A model generated the notes under the pieces. That model did not search any database and was not told where the DNA came from. It saw only the letters and a list, made by a program, of their open reading frames with translations. Source: Melioribacteraceae bacterium (GTDB taxonomy: Bacteria; Bacteroidota; Ignavibacteria; Ignavibacteriales; Melioribacteraceae). From it: a stretch of DNA of 64,000 nt. The translations under genes were made by a program, and so were the position numbers. Position 1 is the stretch's first letter. Each line of letters begins with the position of its first letter. The stretch spans positions 62,001 through 126,000 of the forward strand of contig JAEINS010000003.1 in assembly GCA_016342755.1 (NCBI GenBank), in the 5' to 3' direction. Below, in pieces: positions 43,043 to 59,025 of this stretch.

Positions 43043-43279
43043 TTAAAACAAAAACTTTGACGACACCATTAATGAGCCAAAGAATAAAACTATTTTTAAT
43101 AAGAGAATTACATTCGATTTCATTTTTGCCTTTTTCTGAACCGAAACGTAACCTTCTGTATCTGACTTATAGTCGCCCATTTTAATTGTCCAGTTAAATG
43201 AATTTCTGCATTCCATAAATTTTTCCATTTTAGTATATCTGTTTCTTTCTGCTTTCACTGCTTCATATATTGGCACCAT
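43043..43279 (-). CDS. Small hypothetical protein with C-terminal membrane helix
   Basis: I recognise no family. The 78-residue frame starts with ATG at 43279 and ends with one hydrophobic segment (SNVILLLKIVLFFGSLMVSS) preceded by a basic stretch (VQKKAKMK), suggesting a tail-anchored membrane peptide. There is no clear ribosome-binding site. Support comes from its position between two intrinsic terminators (42962-43000 downstream and 43450-43486 upstream), which isolate it as its own unit. It could still be a chance frame in a transcribed small RNA. Confidence 0.4.
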   Translation of the reverse strand: MVPIYEAVKAERNRYTKMEKFMECRNSFNWTIKMGDYKSDTEGYVSVQKKAKMKSNVILLLKIVLFFGSLMVSSKFLF

Positions 43280-51900: not shown

Positions 51901-52828
51901 TTGCTTTCACCAGGTTTTCATAAAGTTCTGAAATTAATAATCCGGAGAAAATAAGAGTACAGCCTATGAAACCCAAATTAGTAATTTTTTCACTTAATAA
52001 AAAGAAAGCGAAAATTGCGGCAAAAATAGGTTCGAATGAGAATATAATTCCGGCCTTTGTTGGTGTTACATTTTTTTGATATTTTGTTTGCAGCATTGTA
52101 GCCATTACAGAAGCAAAAATTGCGGTATATAATAACCCGAAAATTAAATTACCGGTAACGTTTATTTCTATAGCTTCTATGTTTGTTACATCAAATAGAA
52201 ATGTTATAACAAAAGCTAAACCCGCGGTAACCGCAACTTGCAAAAATGTTAAAATTTTAAAATCATGTTTATAACTGTATATATCCAGAAAAACTATATA
52301 CAGCGCAAATGCGACAGCACAGAATAATGAAAGTAAATCGCCAATATTAAAATTTGCTCCAAGTTCTTCAAAAATCGCAAAAAACGAATTTCCTCCGCTC
52401 GATAAAAATACAATTCCAACAAACACAAAAACTGTCCCAAATATTGCTCCTAATGTTGGCGGTCTTTTTTCTATTACCGTTTGGAATATAGGAATCATAA
52501 CAACGAGAGAGCCCGTTATAAAACCGGATTTTGTTGCTGTTGTAAATTTCAATCCGGCTGTCTGCAGCGCAAATCCGAGAAAGAGAAAAACACCGAGAAT
52601 AAATCCATGTTTAAGAGATTCTTTATCAATATTTTTAATTTGCCTATAGAACAGAATAAGCAGAATTAAAGCAGCTATAGAGAACCTAATAGCAATAAAC
52701 ATAAGCGCGGAAGCGTCATTAAGCGATTCCTTTACAATAGCAAACGTTCCTCCCCAGAAAAGTGTTATAGAAAGGAGAATTATTTCACTTAAAAATTTTA
52801 GCTTTTTAGGATTTACAGAATCACTCAT
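51890..52828 (-). CDS. EamA/DMT family transporter
   Basis: The 312-residue protein has about ten hydrophobic segments arranged as two EamA repeats (FWGGTFAIVKESLNDASALM in the first, AGIIFSFEPIFAAIFAFFLL in the second). This family exports or imports small metabolites, often amino acids or their derivatives; the substrate cannot be deduced. It overlaps era by 8 bases and acyP by 11 bases. Confidence 0.9.
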   Translation of the reverse strand: MSDSVNPKKLKFLSEIILLSITLFWGGTFAIVKESLNDASALMFIAIRFSIAALILLILFYRQIKNIDKESLKHGFILGVFLFLGFALQTAGLKFTTATKSGFITGSLVVMIPIFQTVIEKRPPTLGAIFGTVFVFVGIVFLSSGGNSFFAIFEELGANFNIGDLLSLFCAVAFALYIVFLDIYSYKHDFKILTFLQVAVTAGLAFVITFLFDVTNIEAIEINVTGNLIFGLLYTAIFASVMATMLQTKYQKNVTPTKAGIIFSFEPIFAAIFAFFLLSEKITNLGFIGCTLIFSGLLISELYENLVKANGK

Positions 52829-53729
52829 TTTCTATATCGTAGCCAAACTGACGAAGCATATGTTTATCGGAACGCCATTGTCCTTTTACCTTTACGCGCA
52901 ATTCTAAATAAACCGGTCTTCCAAGAAATCTGTCAATTGCATTTCTGGCAAGTTCGCCAAGGTTTTTTATTGCCTCGCCTTTTTTTCCAATAAGAATAGG
53001 TTTTTGAGATTCTTTTTCAATTATAATTGAAACAAGAATGTAATCCTTCCCTTTTTTACGTTCTTTAAATTCCTCAATAACAACTTCAGTACTGTAAGGC
53101 ACTTCATCTCTGTATTGCTCAAGTATTTTTTCTCTTACAATTTCCGAAACAAAAAATCTTTCAGTCTCATCAGTTATCTGATCATCAGGATAATACTTTG
53201 GATGTTCAGGAAGATGAGATTGAATAATATCCTTTACCAGATCTACATTAAAATGAGTTATGGCAGAAACGCCAAGTATATCAGCGAAAATCTGTTTCTC
53301 TTTAATTGCAAGAGCTAATTCCTTCACCTCATCCGGTTTTACTTTATCAATTTTATTAATGATCAGTATTTTTTTTGCACTGCTCTTTTCCAAAAGTTTT
53401 GCAACAGTTTCATCTTCCAAAGTTTTTACACCATGCGGATCGTCTTTTATATCTATCATACAAACAAGAACATCAGCATCGTGAACAGACTTTGTAACAT
53501 GATCCATCATTTTTTCCTGCAAAAGATATTTTGGCGATAAGATTCCGGGTGTATCCAGAAAAATTATCTGATGGTTTTCATCAGACAAAATTCCCAAAAC
53601 TCTTTTTCTTGTAGTCTGGGGTTTACTTGTTGCAATCGATATTTTCTCACCTAACAAAGCGTTCATCAGGGTAGATTTACCAACATTTGGTTTCCCAATT
53701 ATTGTAACATAACCGGTTTTGGTCTGCAT
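52821..53729 (-). CDS. era: GTPase Era
   Basis: The 302-residue protein has the GTPase motifs GKPNVGKST (G1), LDTPGIL (G3) and NKID (G4) and a C-terminal KH domain (PILIGKKGEAIKNLGELARN). Era binds the 3' end of 16S rRNA and helps mature the small subunit. The ATG at 53729 (MQTKTGYVTIIG) is chosen; the longer frame beginning at 53765 would start within the -10 box of the promoter at 53765-53793. First gene of the era-eamA-acyP-ispF-dedA-lnt-ltaA operon. Confidence 0.95.
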   Translation of the reverse strand: MQTKTGYVTIIGKPNVGKSTLMNALLGEKISIATSKPQTTRKRVLGILSDENHQIIFLDTPGILSPKYLLQEKMMDHVTKSVHDADVLVCMIDIKDDPHGVKTLEDETVAKLLEKSSAKKILIINKIDKVKPDEVKELALAIKEKQIFADILGVSAITHFNVDLVKDIIQSHLPEHPKYYPDDQITDETERFFVSEIVREKILEQYRDEVPYSTEVVIEEFKERKKGKDYILVSIIIEKESQKPILIGKKGEAIKNLGELARNAIDRFLGRPVYLELRVKVKGQWRSDKHMLRQFGYDIENE

Positions 53730-53764
53730 AGTTAACTCTTTTATTTTTATTATTTTAACTGCCA

Positions 53765-53793
53765 AATATAGAGAATGGGCGGCTGAAAGGCAA
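53765..53793 (-). promoter_or_regulatory. Promoter of the era operon
   Basis: Minus strand TTGCCT (53793-53788), 17 bases, TATATT (53770-53765), about 36 bases before the era ATG. The stretch CCATTCTCTATATT is identical to that of the M16 peptidase promoter (26836-26864). It also settles the era start at 53729. Confidence 0.6.
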
Positions 53794-53873: not shown

Positions 53874-54767
53874 ATGAATAAACCCAAATTAGAAGATTAT
53901 ATGCTTCCTTTACTTAAATCATTCAACAAGAATCAAAATTTATCCTACAAAGAAATTATTGAATTCATTACCGAGAATTTTGATTTACTTCAAAATGATG
54001 AATTAAAAAGATCGAGGATGATGATCAATCAGTGTATAGGTTATTTTTTAAAGTCTAACATCATTGAAAGAATTGATAAAGGACATTTCAAGATAATTGA
54101 TAGAGGAGTTGAATTATTAAATAAAAAGTTATTAAAAATAGATTTTCCAACTCTAAGAGAATATCCAGAATTTGAACAATTTGTTCAAAAGAGAAATAAA
54201 AAGCCAATTGAAGACTATACACCTATATTAAGTGAAAAAGAAATTGAGACAATTTCCATTATTCCTGAAGATAGTATTGATTCTTTGTATGAACTTTATA
54301 AAAATAATCTCTCGGATGAAATATTGGAAAAAGTACAAAATTGCACATGGCAATTTTTTGAAATTTTAGTTAAAGACTTACTAGTTGGAATGGGTTATGG
54401 TGATCCATATGATGAGGCAAGAATTACTCAAGGTTCTGGTGATGGTGGAATTGATGGAGTAATTAAAGCAGATGTTCTTGGTTTAGAAATCATTTGTATA
54501 CAGGCAAAAAATTGGGGAAATACAATTGGAAGACCAGAAATTCAAAAATTTGCAGGTAGTTTAGAAAGTAAAAAAGCAAAAAAGGGTGTTTTTCTGACGA
54601 CGGCAACATTTACGAAAGAAGCAAAGGAATACGTTAAAATGATTGAAAAGAAAATCATTTTAATTGATGGTATAAAATTAGCAGAATTAATGATTGATTA
54701 TGATATAGGAGTAAGTGTTCATAAAAAAGTAATTTTGAAAAAGATTGATACAGACTATTTTGAATAA
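53874..54767 (+). CDS. Mrr-like restriction endonuclease (type IV candidate)
   Basis: The 297-residue protein has an N-terminal winged-helix half (LEDYMLPLLKSFNKNQNLSY ... RMMINQCIGYFLKSNI) and a C-terminal PD-(D/E)XK Mrr nuclease domain: WQFFEILVKDLLVGMGYG, GSGDGGIDGVI with the metal aspartate, and EIICIQAKNW with the Q-A-K variant of the catalytic motif, then GVFLTTATFTKEAKEYV. Mrr enzymes cut DNA carrying foreign methylation. It stands alone, with no methylase or other restriction gene beside it, on the opposite strand from its neighbours. An AGGA lies about seven bases before the ATG. Confidence 0.88.
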   Translation: MNKPKLEDYMLPLLKSFNKNQNLSYKEIIEFITENFDLLQNDELKRSRMMINQCIGYFLKSNIIERIDKGHFKIIDRGVELLNKKLLKIDFPTLREYPEFEQFVQKRNKKPIEDYTPILSEKEIETISIIPEDSIDSLYELYKNNLSDEILEKVQNCTWQFFEILVKDLLVGMGYGDPYDEARITQGSGDGGIDGVIKADVLGLEIICIQAKNWGNTIGRPEIQKFAGSLESKKAKKGVFLTTATFTKEAKEYVKMIEKKIILIDGIKLAELMIDYDIGVSVHKKVILKKIDTDYFE

Positions 54768-55011
54768 AAGATTAAATGGAGTGGAACTAAACTAAGATAT
54801 TATTAATAAGCATAAGTTTTTGTAGAAATTGGCTTGAAAAGGAGAATTAAAAACTAAATCTGCATAAAAGCTTTTATTAAAAGGACAATCTCAAATTATC
54901 ATTTGGATAAGGTATTAATTTAAAAATGTTAGAATTTAGTTTTTTTGAATCAATTATTTTGGTCTGGTTATTGAACAATATATAGTAATTAACTAGGCAA
55001 CGGAGTACTTT

Positions 55012-55908
55012 ATGTTTTCAAGACAAATTATAAAATTAGCTGTTTTAATTGGTATAATATTTTTTTCATGCGGTAAAGACGAATCAAATCCAACAGAATT
55101 GAATAATGATACAAATGAAATAAATAAAAGTAATAAACGAGGAATAGCATATAATTTAACTGATCCATTAGATTTAGATTCCTTAAAAAACGGTGTTTCC
55201 TGGTGGTATAACTGGCACTTTAGAACAAATGCCCCATCTAATTATTACGAAGATTATCAGATGGAATATATTCCAATGCTTTGGGGCGGCAACAAAGAAA
55301 ATGACTTTACGGAAGTAAAACAATTAATCCTTGGTCATCCCGAAATAAAATACTTATTAGTTTTAAACGAACCCAATCTAACTGATCAGGCAAATCAGAC
55401 TCCTTTTGAAGCTGCAACTAATTGGGTTAAATACGAATCTTTAGTAGAACAATTAGAAAAAGAAGGCCGTGAAATATATTTGGTTGGACCGGCAATGAAT
55501 TGGGGAACAATGACTAATTATTGGGATCCGGTTGAATGGCTTGATACTTTTTACGATTCATATAGATATATAAATGATAATGAAGATCCAAGAATTGATT
55601 ATTTAGCATTCCACTGGTATGATTACGGACTTGAAGCACAATTAGACAGGTTGCAGAAATACGGCAAGCAGATATGGATAACAGAACTTGCTAATTGGAA
55701 TCAGCAAATAAATTCTTATGCTAAACAGGCGGAACAAATGAAAGAAATGGTTTCGGTTTGTGAATCGCGTGAGGATGTATTTAGATATGCGTGGTTTATT
55801 GGCCGCGGTAATTTACCGGATAATAAATATACTTATTTGTTTGAACCAAATCCCGGTCAGTTAAACGACTTAGGCCGATTGTATTTAAGTTTACCCTTTA
55901 AAAATTAG
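55012..55908 (+). CDS. Lipoprotein glycoside hydrolase, GH128-like
   Basis: The 298-residue protein has a lipoprotein signal (LAVLIGIIFFSCGKDE, lipobox FFSC) and a catalytic TIM-barrel resembling Asl1/GH128: KRGIAYNL, LKNGVSWWYNWHF, LLVLNEPN with the likely acid/base glutamate, YLAFHWYDYG and IWITELANW with the likely nucleophile. GH128 enzymes act on beta-1,3-glucans such as laminarin. It should be tethered to a membrane by lipidation. CGGAG precedes the ATG. It converges with the anti-sigma gene. Confidence 0.82.
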   Translation: MFSRQIIKLAVLIGIIFFSCGKDESNPTELNNDTNEINKSNKRGIAYNLTDPLDLDSLKNGVSWWYNWHFRTNAPSNYYEDYQMEYIPMLWGGNKENDFTEVKQLILGHPEIKYLLVLNEPNLTDQANQTPFEAATNWVKYESLVEQLEKEGREIYLVGPAMNWGTMTNYWDPVEWLDTFYDSYRYINDNEDPRIDYLAFHWYDYGLEAQLDRLQKYGKQIWITELANWNQQINSYAKQAEQMKEMVSVCESREDVFRYAWFIGRGNLPDNKYTYLFEPNPGQLNDLGRLYLSLPFKN

Positions 55909-55928: not shown

Positions 55929-56456
55929 TCACCCAAAACCATTAATTTTCTTTTTAAAGTTTTTGTGAGAATCGTAGATAAAAATTCCGAATACAATTAA
56001 CACACATGCAAAAATTGCTGAAATCATTAAACCGTTATCAGTTAAAACACTTAAATTTAGCGAAGGTATTTTTGACGGTAGAAATTCATGCATTTTTTCT
56101 GATAAAGAGAAATTTTCTAATTCAATTTTAGACGGTGACAGAAACAGCATTGAAGCTCCAAATCCGGCAAAAAGCATTATAATAAAGCTTGATAGTATAA
56201 TAAAAAATGATTTGTTATTTGCCACTTTAATTGATGGAACCGTTTCACTTATTTTAGCCATCACTTTTGCCGTAAAACCGTCAGGGGCTTTTGTAACTTC
56301 CATTTTATGAAGAGTATTATCAACAACTTCAAGAGCCTTTAATTTATTCAAAATTTCGGAATCAGATTCCATTAAACTTTTAAATTCTTTTAGTTCCGAT
56401 GAACTCAGATCGTTATCAATATATCTATTTAATAAATCATCAATGTGCTGTTTCAT
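55929..56456 (-). CDS. Anti-sigma factor (membrane, zinc-less)
   Basis: The 175-residue protein begins with a helical cytoplasmic domain (MKQHIDDLLNRYIDNDLSSS ELK-type) like the N-terminal part of ECF anti-sigma factors, lacks the HxxxCxxC zinc motif, and has two membrane helices (FFIILSSFIIMLFAGFGAS and LMISAIFACVLIVFGIFIY). Its ATG overlaps the sigma stop by four bases (ATGA), so the pair is translationally coupled. It should hold the sigma factor at the membrane until a signal releases it. Family assignment rests mostly on context. Confidence 0.75.
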   Translation of the reverse strand: MKQHIDDLLNRYIDNDLSSSELKEFKSLMESDSEILNKLKALEVVDNTLHKMEVTKAPDGFTAKVMAKISETVPSIKVANNKSFFIILSSFIIMLFAGFGASMLFLSPSKIELENFSLSEKMHEFLPSKIPSLNLSVLTDNGLMISAIFACVLIVFGIFIYDSHKNFKKKINGFG

Positions 56457-57019
56457 AACATTTCCTCATGATAATTATGCTTAAGTAAAAGATCTTTTAA
56501 AGCATTTCTCGATCGGTGCAAAATAACTTTTGTATTAACTAACGACAATCCCATAACATTTCCAATTTCGCTAAGTGAAAGTCCGTCTAAATAATATAAG
56601 ATAATAACAAGCGCTGACTTAATAGGCAACTGATCGATCATTTTCATAATATATTCTTTGGCATTATCGGTCTCGGCATAAATTTTATTGTCCTTATCTT
56701 CAAGATCATAATGATCTTCAATAGACGACATTTGTTTTTCGGTCTGACGTTTTTTTGCTCCGACTACTGTTAATGCGGTATTGTAAACAATTCTGTAAAA
56801 CCATGTTGAAAACTTTGCATCTTGTCTAAAATTATTGAGTGAACTATAAGCTTTTAAGAAACAATCTTGCAGAACTTCCTCCGCATCCATCTCATTTTTC
56901 AGTATTCTTGATAGAAGAGAAAACGCCTTGTCTTTGTATCTATCTATTAATAAAGAGAAATCCGCTTCGTTTCCCCGTTTAATCGATTCAATAATTTCTA
57001 TGTCAGTCAAATTTTTCAT
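56453..57019 (-). CDS. ECF-type RNA polymerase sigma factor
   Basis: The 188-residue protein has sigma region 2 (DAEEVLQDCFLKAYSSLNNF, FSTWFYRIVYNTAL) and region 4 (ALVIILYYLDGLSLSEIGNV then GLSLVNTKVILHRSRNAL). Region 3 is absent, as in ECF sigmas. The start is the ATG at 57019. A promoter matching GTAACC-N17-GTC lies so close upstream (57027-57055) that transcription would begin at or within a few bases of the ATG, pointing to a leaderless mRNA. The same promoter pattern occurs twice facing the opposite genes, so it is probably autoregulated. Confidence 0.93.
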   Translation of the reverse strand: MKNLTDIEIIESIKRGNEADFSLLIDRYKDKAFSLLSRILKNEMDAEEVLQDCFLKAYSSLNNFRQDAKFSTWFYRIVYNTALTVVGAKKRQTEKQMSSIEDHYDLEDKDNKIYAETDNAKEYIMKMIDQLPIKSALVIILYYLDGLSLSEIGNVMGLSLVNTKVILHRSRNALKDLLLKHNYHEEML

Positions 57020-57026
57020 TCGTTAA

Positions 57027-57055
57027 TTAGACTTGTTTCTTTTTTAAAAGGTTAC
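57027..57055 (-). promoter_or_regulatory. ECF-type promoter of the sigma/anti-sigma operon
   Basis: Minus strand GTAACC (57055-57050), 17 bases, GTCTAA (57032-57027). It has the AAC/GTC pattern typical of ECF-dependent promoters and the same boxes and spacing as the two plus-strand copies. The -10 box ends 8 bases before the ATG. Confidence 0.7.
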
Positions 57056-57208
57056 AGAATGCAAAAAATAATTAAACTCCGAATAACAAACCTCAAACAA
57101 AACACAAAGTTCAAAATACAATTTCAAAATTAATGTTTGTTATTTGTTTTTGGGAGTTGGTGTTTATTTGTAATATAGAATTTAAATTTTAGAATTGCCT
57201 TAACAACT

Positions 57209-57237
57209 GTAACCATTTAAGAACAACATTTGTCATA
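57209..57237 (+). promoter_or_regulatory. ECF-type promoter copy 1 facing the tandem membrane genes
   Basis: Plus strand GTAACC (57209-57214), 17 bases, GTCATA (57232-57237). The motif context TGTAACCATT and GTCATAAG is identical in copy 2, 59 bases downstream. Distance to the first ATG is about 90 bases. Confidence 0.65.
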
Positions 57238-57267
57238 AGCTGTGAGTTCAATAAAAATAAATTTATT

Positions 57268-57296
57268 GTAACCATTAGAAAAAAAATTGAGTCATA
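57268..57296 (+). promoter_or_regulatory. ECF-type promoter copy 2 facing the tandem membrane genes
   Basis: Plus strand GTAACC (57268-57273), 17 bases, GTCATA (57291-57296), ending 31 bases before the first ATG at 57328. This is the best placed of the two plus-strand copies for a short leader with the GAGG ribosome-binding site. Confidence 0.7.
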
Positions 57297-57327
57297 AGTT
57301 ATAAATTTCAAAATAGTGAGGTATAAA

Positions 57328-57678
57328 ATGGAAGCTGTATTAGGAATAATTTTTGGAATAGGAATACCGGGCGCAGTTATAATAACCTGGATATTTTTCC
57401 GTTCAAAAGAGAGACAAATGTTAATACAAAAAGGATTTACAAACGATCAGATTATCTCTTTATATTCTTCAAAGAAAAATCCATACATCTGGTTAAAATT
57501 GGGAATAATTGTTGTTTTCTTTGGAATAGGATTGGGAGTAGGCGGATTACTTGAGAACTTAACTAATGTAGAAATGTTTCTTCCATTTGGATTTATAACC
57601 TTCACTGGGCTTGGATTTGTAGTTGGTTATTATGTTTCAAGAAAATTTGAAAAAGAAGATCAAGAAAACGAGGTATAA
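57328..57678 (+). CDS. Small membrane protein (DUF6249-like), copy 1
   Basis: The 116-residue protein starts MEAVLGIIFGIGIPGAVIIT and has three membrane segments (residues about 4-24, 55-75 and 82-104) with a cytoplasmic loop containing FRSKERQMLIQKGFTNDQII and KKNPYIWLK. This layout resembles the DUF6249 family seen beside ECF sigma genes in Bacteroidota; the name is from memory. The ATG at 57328 is chosen over the GTG at 57316 because the GAGG ribosome-binding site lies between them. It is followed one base later by its paralogue. Confidence 0.78.
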   Translation: MEAVLGIIFGIGIPGAVIITWIFFRSKERQMLIQKGFTNDQIISLYSSKKNPYIWLKLGIIVVFFGIGLGVGGLLENLTNVEMFLPFGFITFTGLGFVVGYYVSRKFEKEDQENEV

Positions 57679-57679
57679 A

Positions 57680-58036
57680 ATGGAAGGCACTTTAGGAATA
57701 TTGTTTGGAATTGGAATACCTGCCCTAATTGTATTTTCCTGGATCTTTTTTAATTCCAAAGAAAGACTGCTTATGATAAAAGAAAATTTGACATCTGAAC
57801 AAATTATTGATATCTACAAACAGAAGAAAAATCCTTATTTATCTTTACAAGTTGGATTAGTAATTATTTTTGTAGGTATTGGAATGTCTTTAGGATTTTT
57901 AGTTGATCAATATAGTTTTAACCAGTTTTTAGCTCCATTCTGTTTTATTACTTTCATCGGATTTGGATTAATAGTTGCACATTTTGCGGCCAGGAAGTAT
58001 GAAAAAGAAGATAGATTAGGAAATTCGGTTAATTAA
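57680..58036 (+). CDS. Small membrane protein (DUF6249-like), copy 2
   Basis: The 118-residue protein begins MEGTLGILFGIGIPALIVFS and aligns along its whole length with copy 1 (FNSKERLLMIKENLTSEQII, KKNPYLSLQVGLVIIF), so the two arose by tandem duplication. The ATG at 57680 lies one base after the copy 1 stop; the ribosome-binding block GAGGTATAAAATG is identical in both genes, and in copy 2 it sits inside the last codons of copy 1. The longer frame from 57623 overlaps copy 1 and is rejected. Function unknown. Confidence 0.78.
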   Translation: MEGTLGILFGIGIPALIVFSWIFFNSKERLLMIKENLTSEQIIDIYKQKKNPYLSLQVGLVIIFVGIGMSLGFLVDQYSFNQFLAPFCFITFIGFGLIVAHFAARKYEKEDRLGNSVN

Positions 58037-58080: not shown

Positions 58081-59025
58081 TTATTCTTGTTCAATCAGCC
58101 ATCTTTCAGCATCTAAAGCAGCTTTACAACCACTTCCGGCAGCAGTAATAGCCTGGCGGTAAGAATCATCAGAAACATCACCCGCAGCAAAAACACCTTC
58201 AATATTTGTAGCAGTTAAAGGATCTTTAACAGTAAGATAACCAACTTCATTCATATCTAACTGACCCTTAAAAATATCGGTATTTGGTTTATGGCCAATT
58301 CCCATAAAGATTCCATCACACGAAACTTCTTTTGTACTGCCGTCTTTTGTACTTTCCAAGACAGCACCGGTAACTCTTTTTTGTCCGTTTTCTTCAAGAC
58401 CAAGAACTTCTTTTAAAGTATAACTTAACTCTAAAGAAACATTAGGAGTATTTCTAACTCTATCTTCCATAATTTTAGAAGCTCTAAATTCATCTCGCCT
58501 GTGAACAACTACAACTTCCTTAGCAAATTTTGTTAGGTGATGAGCTTCTTCCATTGCTGTATCACCACCGCCAATTACCAGCACTTTTAAGCCTCTGTAA
58601 AAGAAAGCATCGCATGTTGCACATGCCGAAACGCCATAACCTTTGTATTCTTCAATTCCCTTTGCGTCCATATATTTTGCTGACGCGCCAGTAGCAATAA
58701 TTACACTGTCGGATGTATGAACTTCATCACCAACGCTAATTGTAAAAGGTCTTTTAGAAAGATCAGCTTTTGTAACTTCTTTAAAGTATGTTTCAGCACC
58801 AAATCTTTGAGCTTGTTTTCTAAGAACATCCATTAACTCAGGACCAGTAATTCCGTCAACAAATCCGGGATAATTTTCAACTTCATTTGTTGTTGTCAAT
58901 TGTCCGCCCGGCTGCATTCCTTCAAATACAACTGGCTTTAAGTCAGCTCTGGCAGCATAAATTGCCGCTGTTAATCCGGCAGGGCCAGAACCAATAATTA
59001 AAACTTTATGATGATTATCTGCCAT
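58081..59025 (-). CDS. trxB: Thioredoxin-disulfide reductase
   Basis: The 314-residue flavoprotein has the FAD motif IIGSGPAGLTAAIYAAR, the redox-active CATC in SACATCDAFFYRG, the NADPH motif VIGGGDTAMEEAHHL and the second FAD motif VFAAGDVSDD. It reduces thioredoxin with NADPH in the cytoplasm. AAGGAG precedes the ATG. It is a single-gene unit with its own terminator; no thioredoxin gene is nearby. Confidence 0.96.
   Translation of the reverse strand: MADNHHKVLIIGSGPAGLTAAIYAARADLKPVVFEGMQPGGQLTTTNEVENYPGFVDGITGPELMDVLRKQAQRFGAETYFKEVTKADLSKRPFTISVGDEVHTSDSVIIATGASAKYMDAKGIEEYKGYGVSACATCDAFFYRGLKVLVIGGGDTAMEEAHHLTKFAKEVVVVHRRDEFRASKIMEDRVRNTPNVSLELSYTLKEVLGLEENGQKRVTGAVLESTKDGSTKEVSCDGIFMGIGHKPNTDIFKGQLDMNEVGYLTVKDPLTATNIEGVFAAGDVSDDSYRQAITAAGSGCKAALDAERWLIEQE

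What the first reader, a model, noticed from the sequence alone, without database searches (positions are those of the whole stretch)
56453..58036. Self-contained ECF sigma regulon with three matching promoters in one intergenic region
Three sites with identical -35 (GTAACC), identical 17-base spacing and GTC-starting -10 boxes lie between the divergent sigma and membrane-protein genes: one facing the sigma gene (57055-57027) and two facing the tandem membrane genes (57209-57237, 57268-57296). No other site of this type turned up when I looked through the window. The boxes follow the known AAC/GTC pattern of ECF promoters. The inference is that this sigma factor drives its own operon and the paired membrane proteins, with the zinc-less anti-sigma as the sensor.
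Basis: partly seen in the sequence, partly recalled or inferred. Interest (0 to 1): 0.78.

Follow-up and report, generated by a model that had tools for sequence, protein, structure and literature searches.

The report
Private sigma-factor circuit for DUF6249 proteins
A stress-type transcription switch (sigma factor plus membrane-bound inhibitor) carries its own DNA address in front of itself and of two small membrane proteins and almost nowhere else in the genome, and the same private circuit recurs across a bacterial phylum.

Summary
Three GTAACC-N17-GTC sites lie where stated. A profile of the motif ranks these three first in the whole 4.7 Mb genome (E 3e-5 to 7e-4; next best 0.36). In 47 of 47 orthologous loci the motif faces the sigma gene, and in 43 of 47 the divergent gene (107 sites, 0.36 in shuffles). 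The divergent genes encode DUF6249 membrane proteins, which co-occur with the sigma across 58 genomes. Outside the order, 64 of 67 DUF6249 loci read also carry an ECF sigma. Where the -35 box differs (GTAAC, GAAAC, GCAAC), both promoters differ together (38 of 39), and a recognition-helix residue of the sigma differs with them, though on few independent changes. The sigma's own promoter ends 9-12 nt before its start codon in 43 of 47 loci, predicting a leaderless or nearly leaderless mRNA. A few relatives may add toastrack (DUF4097) or serine-hydrolase genes. Most likely a SigW/RsiW-like membrane-signalled switch dedicated to DUF6249. The signal and the function of DUF6249 remain unknown.

The parts
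56453..57019 (-). ECF sigma factor, 188 aa (sigma70 regions 2 and 4)
   Evidence: Pfam Sigma70_r2 4.4e-14, r4_2 5.4e-10; closest solved relatives SigW 5wuq 1.6e-23 and E. coli sigma-E 1or7 4.8e-23
55929..56456 (-). Membrane anti-sigma factor, 175 aa, 4-nt overlap with sigma; predicted cytoplasmic anti-sigma domain about 1-72, membrane helices about 81-109 and 135-165; no zinc motif
   Evidence: profile of 52 relatives matches RsiW 5wuq_C, E 2.5e-6; model pLDDT 80; hydropathy and Cys count; HxxxCxxC in 8 of 77 relatives
57030..57055 (-). Sigma-facing promoter GTAACC-N17-GTC; GTC ends 10 nt before the sigma ATG
   Evidence: profile E 5.9e-4; such a site in 47 of 47 loci
57209..57234 (+). Distal DUF6249-facing promoter, 93 nt before ATG 57328
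   Evidence: profile E 7.1e-4
57268..57293 (+). Proximal DUF6249-facing promoter, 34 nt before ATG 57328
   Evidence: profile E 3.2e-5, best in the genome
57328..57678 (+). DUF6249 membrane protein, copy 1, 116 aa, three predicted membrane helices
   Evidence: PF19762 2.7e-12; AlphaFold2 pLDDT 91, helices 2-34, 39-48, 54-79, 84-113
57680..58036 (+). DUF6249 membrane protein, copy 2, 118 aa (tandem duplicate; same GAGGTATAAAATGGA start context)
   Evidence: PF19762 1.5e-12; start contexts printed

Best explanation
An autoregulated, nearly private ECF sigma circuit. The membrane anti-sigma holds the sigma through an RsiW-like cytoplasmic domain. An envelope signal releases the sigma (inferred). 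RNA polymerase with this sigma then reads GTAACC-N16..18-GTC promoters followed by an A-rich stretch: one in front of the sigma/anti-sigma operon, which amplifies and then re-represses the system, and one or two in front of the DUF6249 genes. The sigma's own promoter abuts its start codon, so its induced mRNA should be leaderless or carry only a few nucleotides before AUG (predicted, not measured). DUF6249 proteins are the dedicated output, acting either in the envelope or as feedback on the anti-sigma (inferred). The -35 second base is probably read through sigma residue 165 in region 4.2 (supported by covariation only).
For: The three window sites are the three best profile hits genome-wide, about 500-fold in E from the next (they were among the 67 training sites). 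47/47 orthologous loci have a sigma-facing site and 43/47 a site facing the divergent gene; 107 sites against 0.36 in shuffles. Strict-motif hits: 62 of 80 at the module, 18 elsewhere, against 20 for the reversed pattern (my tally). Profile hits with E<0.01 in 57 family genomes: 48 of 51 at a sigma/DUF6249 locus (my tally). Sigma and DUF6249 co-occur: 48 of 48 with the sigma, 0 of 10 without (Fisher 1.9e-11). In G020 and G021, where DUF6249 lies away from the sigma, it has its own site. Sigma in 64 of 67 DUF6249 loci outside the order. Paired -35 agreement 38/39, permutation mean 25.8, maximum 34 of 20,000. Residue 165 is V/I in 86 of 88 GTAAC sigmas, T/A in 15 of 15 GAAAC, S in both GCAAC sigmas in the tree.
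Against: No transcript, binding or mutant data. The -35/residue covariation rests on about three changes on the tree, and positions 149 and 161 separate the two classes almost as well, so part of it is clade signal. Three of 67 phylum loci lack a sigma in the stretch read (L208, L234, L241); L177 and L178 have only low-scoring ECFs; some modules show no site by my patterns. In L018 and L021 the sigma-facing site lies 70 and 84 nt upstream; L086 (22) and L087 (4, or 10 from a GTG start) also depart from 9-12 nt. Some relatives may have extra targets.
Confidence: 0.88

Rival explanations
1. DUF6249 is not an effector but a third component of the switch: a co-sensor or second membrane regulator that binds the anti-sigma (feedback loop), so the circuit mainly regulates itself.
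For: It is the one target found throughout the order and is absent where the sigma is absent; mostly single-copy; E28, I33 and G36 in the stretch between helices 1 and 2 are nearly invariant.
Against: It can lie away from the sigma (G020, G021) and be duplicated (window, G044, G051); no interaction evidence; possible DUF4097 and serine-hydrolase targets in some relatives point to an outward envelope response.
Confidence: 0.35
2. The sites are read by a different ECF sigma of the same genome, or bound by a repressor, and the adjacent sigma has another regulon.
For: The genome encodes many ECF sigmas (15 matches to this sigma in G000); -35 AAC boxes are shared by many ECFs (recalled).
Against: Sigma and DUF6249 are present or absent together; both promoters covary with residue 165 of this very sigma; the sites keep promoter geometry and a fixed position before the sigma start.
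Confidence: 0.06
3. The 9-12 nt placement does not mean leaderless translation: the true sigma start codon lies further downstream, or a second upstream promoter gives a leadered mRNA.
For: L018 and L021 have the site 70 and 84 nt upstream; basal expression must come from somewhere.
Against: Most orthologues align from residue 1 at this ATG.
Confidence: 0.2

Closest known systems
Bacillus SigW-RsiW
   Same: Closest solved sigma (5wuq, 1.6e-23) and anti-sigma domain (2.5e-6) by sequence; membrane anti-sigma and autoregulation (recalled)
   Different: -35 GTAACC and -10 GTC here; SigW reads TGAAAC/CGTA (recalled), which would fit its Thr at the residue-165 position; SigW controls a large regulon (recalled), this one a private one; SigW NCBIfam score 116, under the 209 cut-off
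Caulobacter sigma-F / Brucella BcrS systems
   Same: GTAACC -35 box; small set of targets with a site before the sigma's own operon (passages of PMC3511200 and PMC8315932)
   Different: -10 is CGAA; the Caulobacter negative regulator is a six-TM DUF1109 protein and its targets are DUF692, DUF2282 and others, not DUF6249
Bacteroidota EcfO-Reo and Das-Dma (ECF21)
   Same: Bacteroidota ECF/anti-sigma pairs, EcfO-Reo linked to envelope stress (passages of PMC13114119, PMC9308784, PMC13088901)
   Different: Their anti-sigmas are large and reach the outer membrane with a beta-barrel; this one is 175 aa with two predicted membrane helices; targets there include NigD lipoproteins (EcfO, Das1)
P. gingivalis PG0985-PG0987 operon
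   Same: Three-gene operon that includes an ECF sigma; the PG0985 mutant survives H2O2 less well (passages of PMC9045371 and of the review PMC9862357)
   Different: Orthology to this module was not tested; a lead only

Membership tests
ECF sigma factor | sigma2 and sigma4 domains, no sigma3 | tested here: met
   NCBIfam sigma70-ECF 89.7 bits over cut-off 42.9
Class I anti-sigma domain | N-terminal helical domain related to RsiW/RseA/ChrR | tested here: met
   profile vs 5wuq_C RsiW 2.5e-6; RsrA 0.025 and ChrR 0.06 only weakly
Zinc anti-sigma (ZAS) | HxxxCxxC | tested here: not met
   window protein lacks it; 8 of 77 relatives have it; zf-HC2 over cut-off in same-class L221
SigW equivalog | NCBIfam cut-off; TGAAAC/CGTA promoter (recalled) | tested here: not met
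   116 bits vs 209; promoter is GTAACC/GTC
ECF21 / Dma pair | dual-membrane-spanning anti-sigma with beta-barrel | tested here: not met
   175 aa, two predicted membrane helices
DUF6249 (PF19762) | Pfam gathering cut-off 33 bits | tested here: met
   47.0 and 47.8 bits
ECF group of the 2021 re-classification | group HMM | not testable with these tools
   paper not held; no group models at hand

The most novel reading that the evidence does not exclude
A phylum-wide ECF sigma lineage in Bacteroidota whose ancestral and sometimes only regulon is one membrane-protein family (DUF6249) plus itself: effectively a one-target sigma whose induced mRNA is leaderless by design, so that induction changes not only how much sigma mRNA is made but also how it is translated, and whose -35 specificity is tuned by one residue (V/I, T/A, S at position 165 for GTAAC, GAAAC, GCAAC).
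Probability: 0.5. Interest if true: 0.7.

Novelty: new member of a known kind. Interest (0 to 1): 0.52.

Why it matters
It gives a regulatory context to DUF6249, a membrane family of unknown function found in 89 of 296 phylum genomes sampled. It offers a minimal, testable sigma circuit (one regulator, one inhibitor, one output). It also supplies a natural series for -35 recognition by one sigma residue. The abutting promoter/start-codon geometry makes leaderless translation in Bacteroidota directly testable.

Tried and rejected
Bare GTAACC-N15..18-GTC genome search: not specific (53 hits vs 91 for the reversed control), so I moved to an extended pattern and a profile. DUF6249 profile and model against solved structures: no significant match. 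Own-genome hits G000:C14:28844 (E 0.69, 30 nt before a 392-aa protein without a Pfam match) and C5:4940 (E 0.36, inside an ORF): not counted as targets. In 18 genomes of family f28, 8 of 41 pattern hits lie away from the module; six of these are near-identical GTAACCTACNGCAGA-type sequences; the reversed control gives 23 (my tallies). Genes between DUF6249 and sigma in L187 and L196 looked DUF4097-like to me, but Pfam did not confirm it. Other profile hits looked at without a pattern emerging: before an ABC-transporter ATPase (L298), an alpha/beta hydrolase (L311), an unassigned protein (L301), and L312, L313.

Literature (open-licence library only): DUF6249 in one unrelated paper (listing only); GTAACC with sigma factor, promoter and Bacteroidetes: none; listings; passages only of the papers cited by call. 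PMC3616915 passages report leaderless mRNAs in Sinorhizobium, with no match to this case seen; PMC3817407 held none of the terms sought and PMC3498285 neither box sequence sought. The ECF re-classification paper is not held, so an earlier listing of this group there is not excluded.

Full report
Observation. The intergenic region between the sigma gene (57019-56453, -) and the divergent membrane genes (57328-57678 and 57680-58036, +) holds three GTAACC-N17-GTC sites: 57055-57030 (-), 57209-57234 (+) and 57268-57293 (+). GTC ends 10 nt before the sigma ATG, and 93 and 34 nt before the first DUF6249 ATG. One further loose match at 43148 has N18 spacing and lies inside a 78-aa ORF on the other strand. 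The bare pattern is common in the genome (53 hits; reversed control 91) and proves nothing alone.

Parts. The sigma has Sigma70 regions 2 and 4 and is closest, among solved proteins, to SigW and E. coli sigma-E. The next gene overlaps it by 4 nt and encodes a 175-aa membrane protein. A profile of 52 relatives matches the anti-sigma domain of RsiW at 2.5e-6. The model (pLDDT 80) has four helices within residues 2-72 and later helices at 82-105, 118-137 and 140-174; hydropathy marks 81-109 and 135-165. It has no zinc motif, and HxxxCxxC occurs in 8 of 77 relatives. Both divergent proteins are DUF6249 (47.0 and 47.8 bits, cut-off 33). The AlphaFold2 model (pLDDT 91) has three long, presumably membrane, helices and a short helix between the first two. 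Neither the profile nor the model gave a significant match among solved structures.

Conservation within the order. The sigma search covered 58 genomes. I examined 47 orthologous loci; L013 (gene cut by the contig start), L094 (paralogue) and L096 (no sigma) were left out. All 47 have a GTAACN-N16..18-GTC site facing the sigma, and 43 one facing the divergent ORF: 107 sites, against a mean of 0.36 and maximum of 2 in 100 dinucleotide shuffles. The four misses: in L022 and L090 the script picked a start codon too far upstream and the site overlaps the added stretch; L092 ends at the contig edge; in L023 (G021) the divergent gene is not DUF6249, which lies on another contig with its own site. 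Seventeen of 47 loci have two DUF6249-facing sites: 23-34 and 87-127 nt before the ATG in 16, 56 and 176 in one, the former as in the window.

Specificity. The strict pattern GTAACCWWT-N13..15-GTCWHAA gives 80 hits in 58 genomes. By my tally 62 lie at the sigma or DUF6249 gene and 18 elsewhere, while the reversed pattern gives 20, so there is no excess outside the module. A sequence profile of 67 sites, which include the three of the window, finds these three first in the own genome (3.2e-5, 5.9e-4, 7.1e-4) and nothing else under 0.36. In 57 family genomes (listing cut; stricter filters) 48 of the 51 hits with E<0.01 lie at a sigma or DUF6249 locus (my tally). The three others are a site 21 nt before a DUF4097 'toastrack' gene in G347 and G172, same genus (4.6e-4, 6.7e-4), and one 22 nt before a PF00144 serine hydrolase in G010 (0.0084). 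I also looked at weaker hits: a DUF4097 gene in G342 (0.018, 22 nt) and serine hydrolases in G007 (0.014, 235 nt) and G008 (0.035, 20 nt). In L209 and L240 a PF00144 gene follows the anti-sigma gene. E-values are per genome, so hits of 0.01-0.04 are expected by chance among 57 genomes; only the recurrence of the two families makes them interesting. These may be lineage-specific additions with an envelope flavour (inference).

Co-occurrence. In some searches, on the same 58 genomes, the orthologous sigma is present in 48 (counting a 57%-identical fragment at a contig end in G043) and DUF6249 in the same 48 (46 over cut-off; G044 and G051 below it but at the locus). In the 10 genomes without the sigma none has DUF6249 over cut-off (G050 has a 24-bit match in a 402-aa frame). 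Fisher 1.9e-11, without correction for relatedness. One caution: G033 lacks the sigma and DUF6249 but has the anti-sigma and a strict site near a contig end, so its absence may be an assembly gap. In G021 and G020 DUF6249 lies inside another contig with no sigma in the stretch read, and has its own site upstream. In G029 it lies on a short contig, also with a site, but there a contig break is the likely cause.

Beyond the order. DUF6249 was found in 89 of 296 phylum genomes. I read all 67 places outside the order that passed the cut-off there (28 loci with 1.5 kb and 39 with about 2 kb on each side, 62 genomes). An ECF sigma lies in 64 of 67 (not in L208, L234, L241; L177 and L178 are low-scoring). 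By my tally 33 of the 67 have a GTAAC-type site before the sigma and/or DUF6249. Many of the rest have variants such as GAAACC or GCAACA, or ATC at -10, and some show no site by these patterns. In three Brumimicrobium records and a Prevotella MAG DUF6249 and the sigma lie in tandem, and the only module site precedes DUF6249.

Does this sigma read these sites? In 39 loci outside the order with both sites, the second base of the -35 is the same in the sigma-facing and DUF6249-facing site in 38 (T/T 31, A/A 6, C/C 1, A/C 1). Permutation gives a mean of 25.8 and a maximum of 34 in 20,000. The first base of the -10 agrees in 38 of 39 (p 0.004). Residue 165 in the region-4.2 recognition helix is the aligned sigma position that separates GTAAC from GAAAC loci best, without overlap; positions 149 and 161 come close. 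It is V or I in 86 of 88 GTAAC sigmas (one T, one gap), T or A in 15 of 15 GAAAC sigmas, and S in the two GCAAC sigmas of the tree, including sister pair L239 (S, GCAAC) and L240 (V, GTAAC). In the alignments SigW has Thr there and E. coli sigma-E Ser. The tree needs only three changes of the -35 label, and the GAAAC sigmas form one clade, so this is suggestive of direct recognition and not a statistical proof.

Leaderless prediction. In 43 of 47 order loci GTC ends 9-12 nt before the sigma start codon. In the wider scan 89 of 122 loci had a site within 3-24 nt of a sigma start, and 77 of these 89 had 9-12 nt. With a start point some 6-10 nt after the -10 (recalled for ECF promoters) the mRNA would begin at or within a few nt of AUG. 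Exceptions in the order: L018, L021, L086, L087.

How it most likely works. Shown by sequence: module, promoters, their private distribution and joint variation. Inferred: membrane signal, release of the sigma, positive feedback, re-capture by new anti-sigma, DUF6249 as output. Unknown: the signal, and whether DUF6249 protects the envelope or feeds back on the anti-sigma.

Known relatives. GTAACC -35 boxes are known from Caulobacter sigma-F (GTAACC-N16-CGAA; passages of PMC3511200) and Brucella BcrS (passage of PMC8315932), with a different -10 and, for sigma-F, different partners. Bacteroidota EcfO-Reo and Das-Dma use outer-membrane-reaching anti-sigmas (passages). This is an ECF/anti-sigma system of a known kind with a private target family. 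In the one search for DUF6249 no paper linked it to a sigma factor.

Noticed in passing
window 52821-53765 and 53874-55908: An Era-like GTPase gene follows the sigma/anti-sigma pair on the same strand in 55 of 72 relatives with over 900 nt after the sigma. In the window an Mrr-type restriction endonuclease (PF04471) and a PF11790 glycosyl-hydrolase-core protein lie between them and had no match in those relatives' loci.
   Followed up: partly
window 58081-59025: A trxB-like gene lies beyond DUF6249 in 57 of 66 relatives with over 1500 nt before the sigma: synteny trxB - DUF6249 / sigma - anti-sigma - era.
   Followed up: partly
L209 1-771 (-), L240 3407-4294 (+), L296, L297, L307: PF00144 serine hydrolases recur beside the module or behind a motif-like site in different relatives.
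   Followed up: partly
L294, L295, L310: DUF4097 toastrack genes (Pfam run on L294 and L310) carry a motif-like site 21-22 nt before their start codon, a possible link to envelope-stress proteins.
   Followed up: partly
L221, L205, L193: Same-class anti-sigmas contain CxxC-type motifs (zf-HC2 over cut-off in L221 only; starts of the sequences), so the zinc motif may have been lost in this order.
   Followed up: partly
window 57645-57700: The two DUF6249 genes share the same start context (GAGGTATAAAATGGA) and lie one base apart: a tandem duplication.
   Followed up: no
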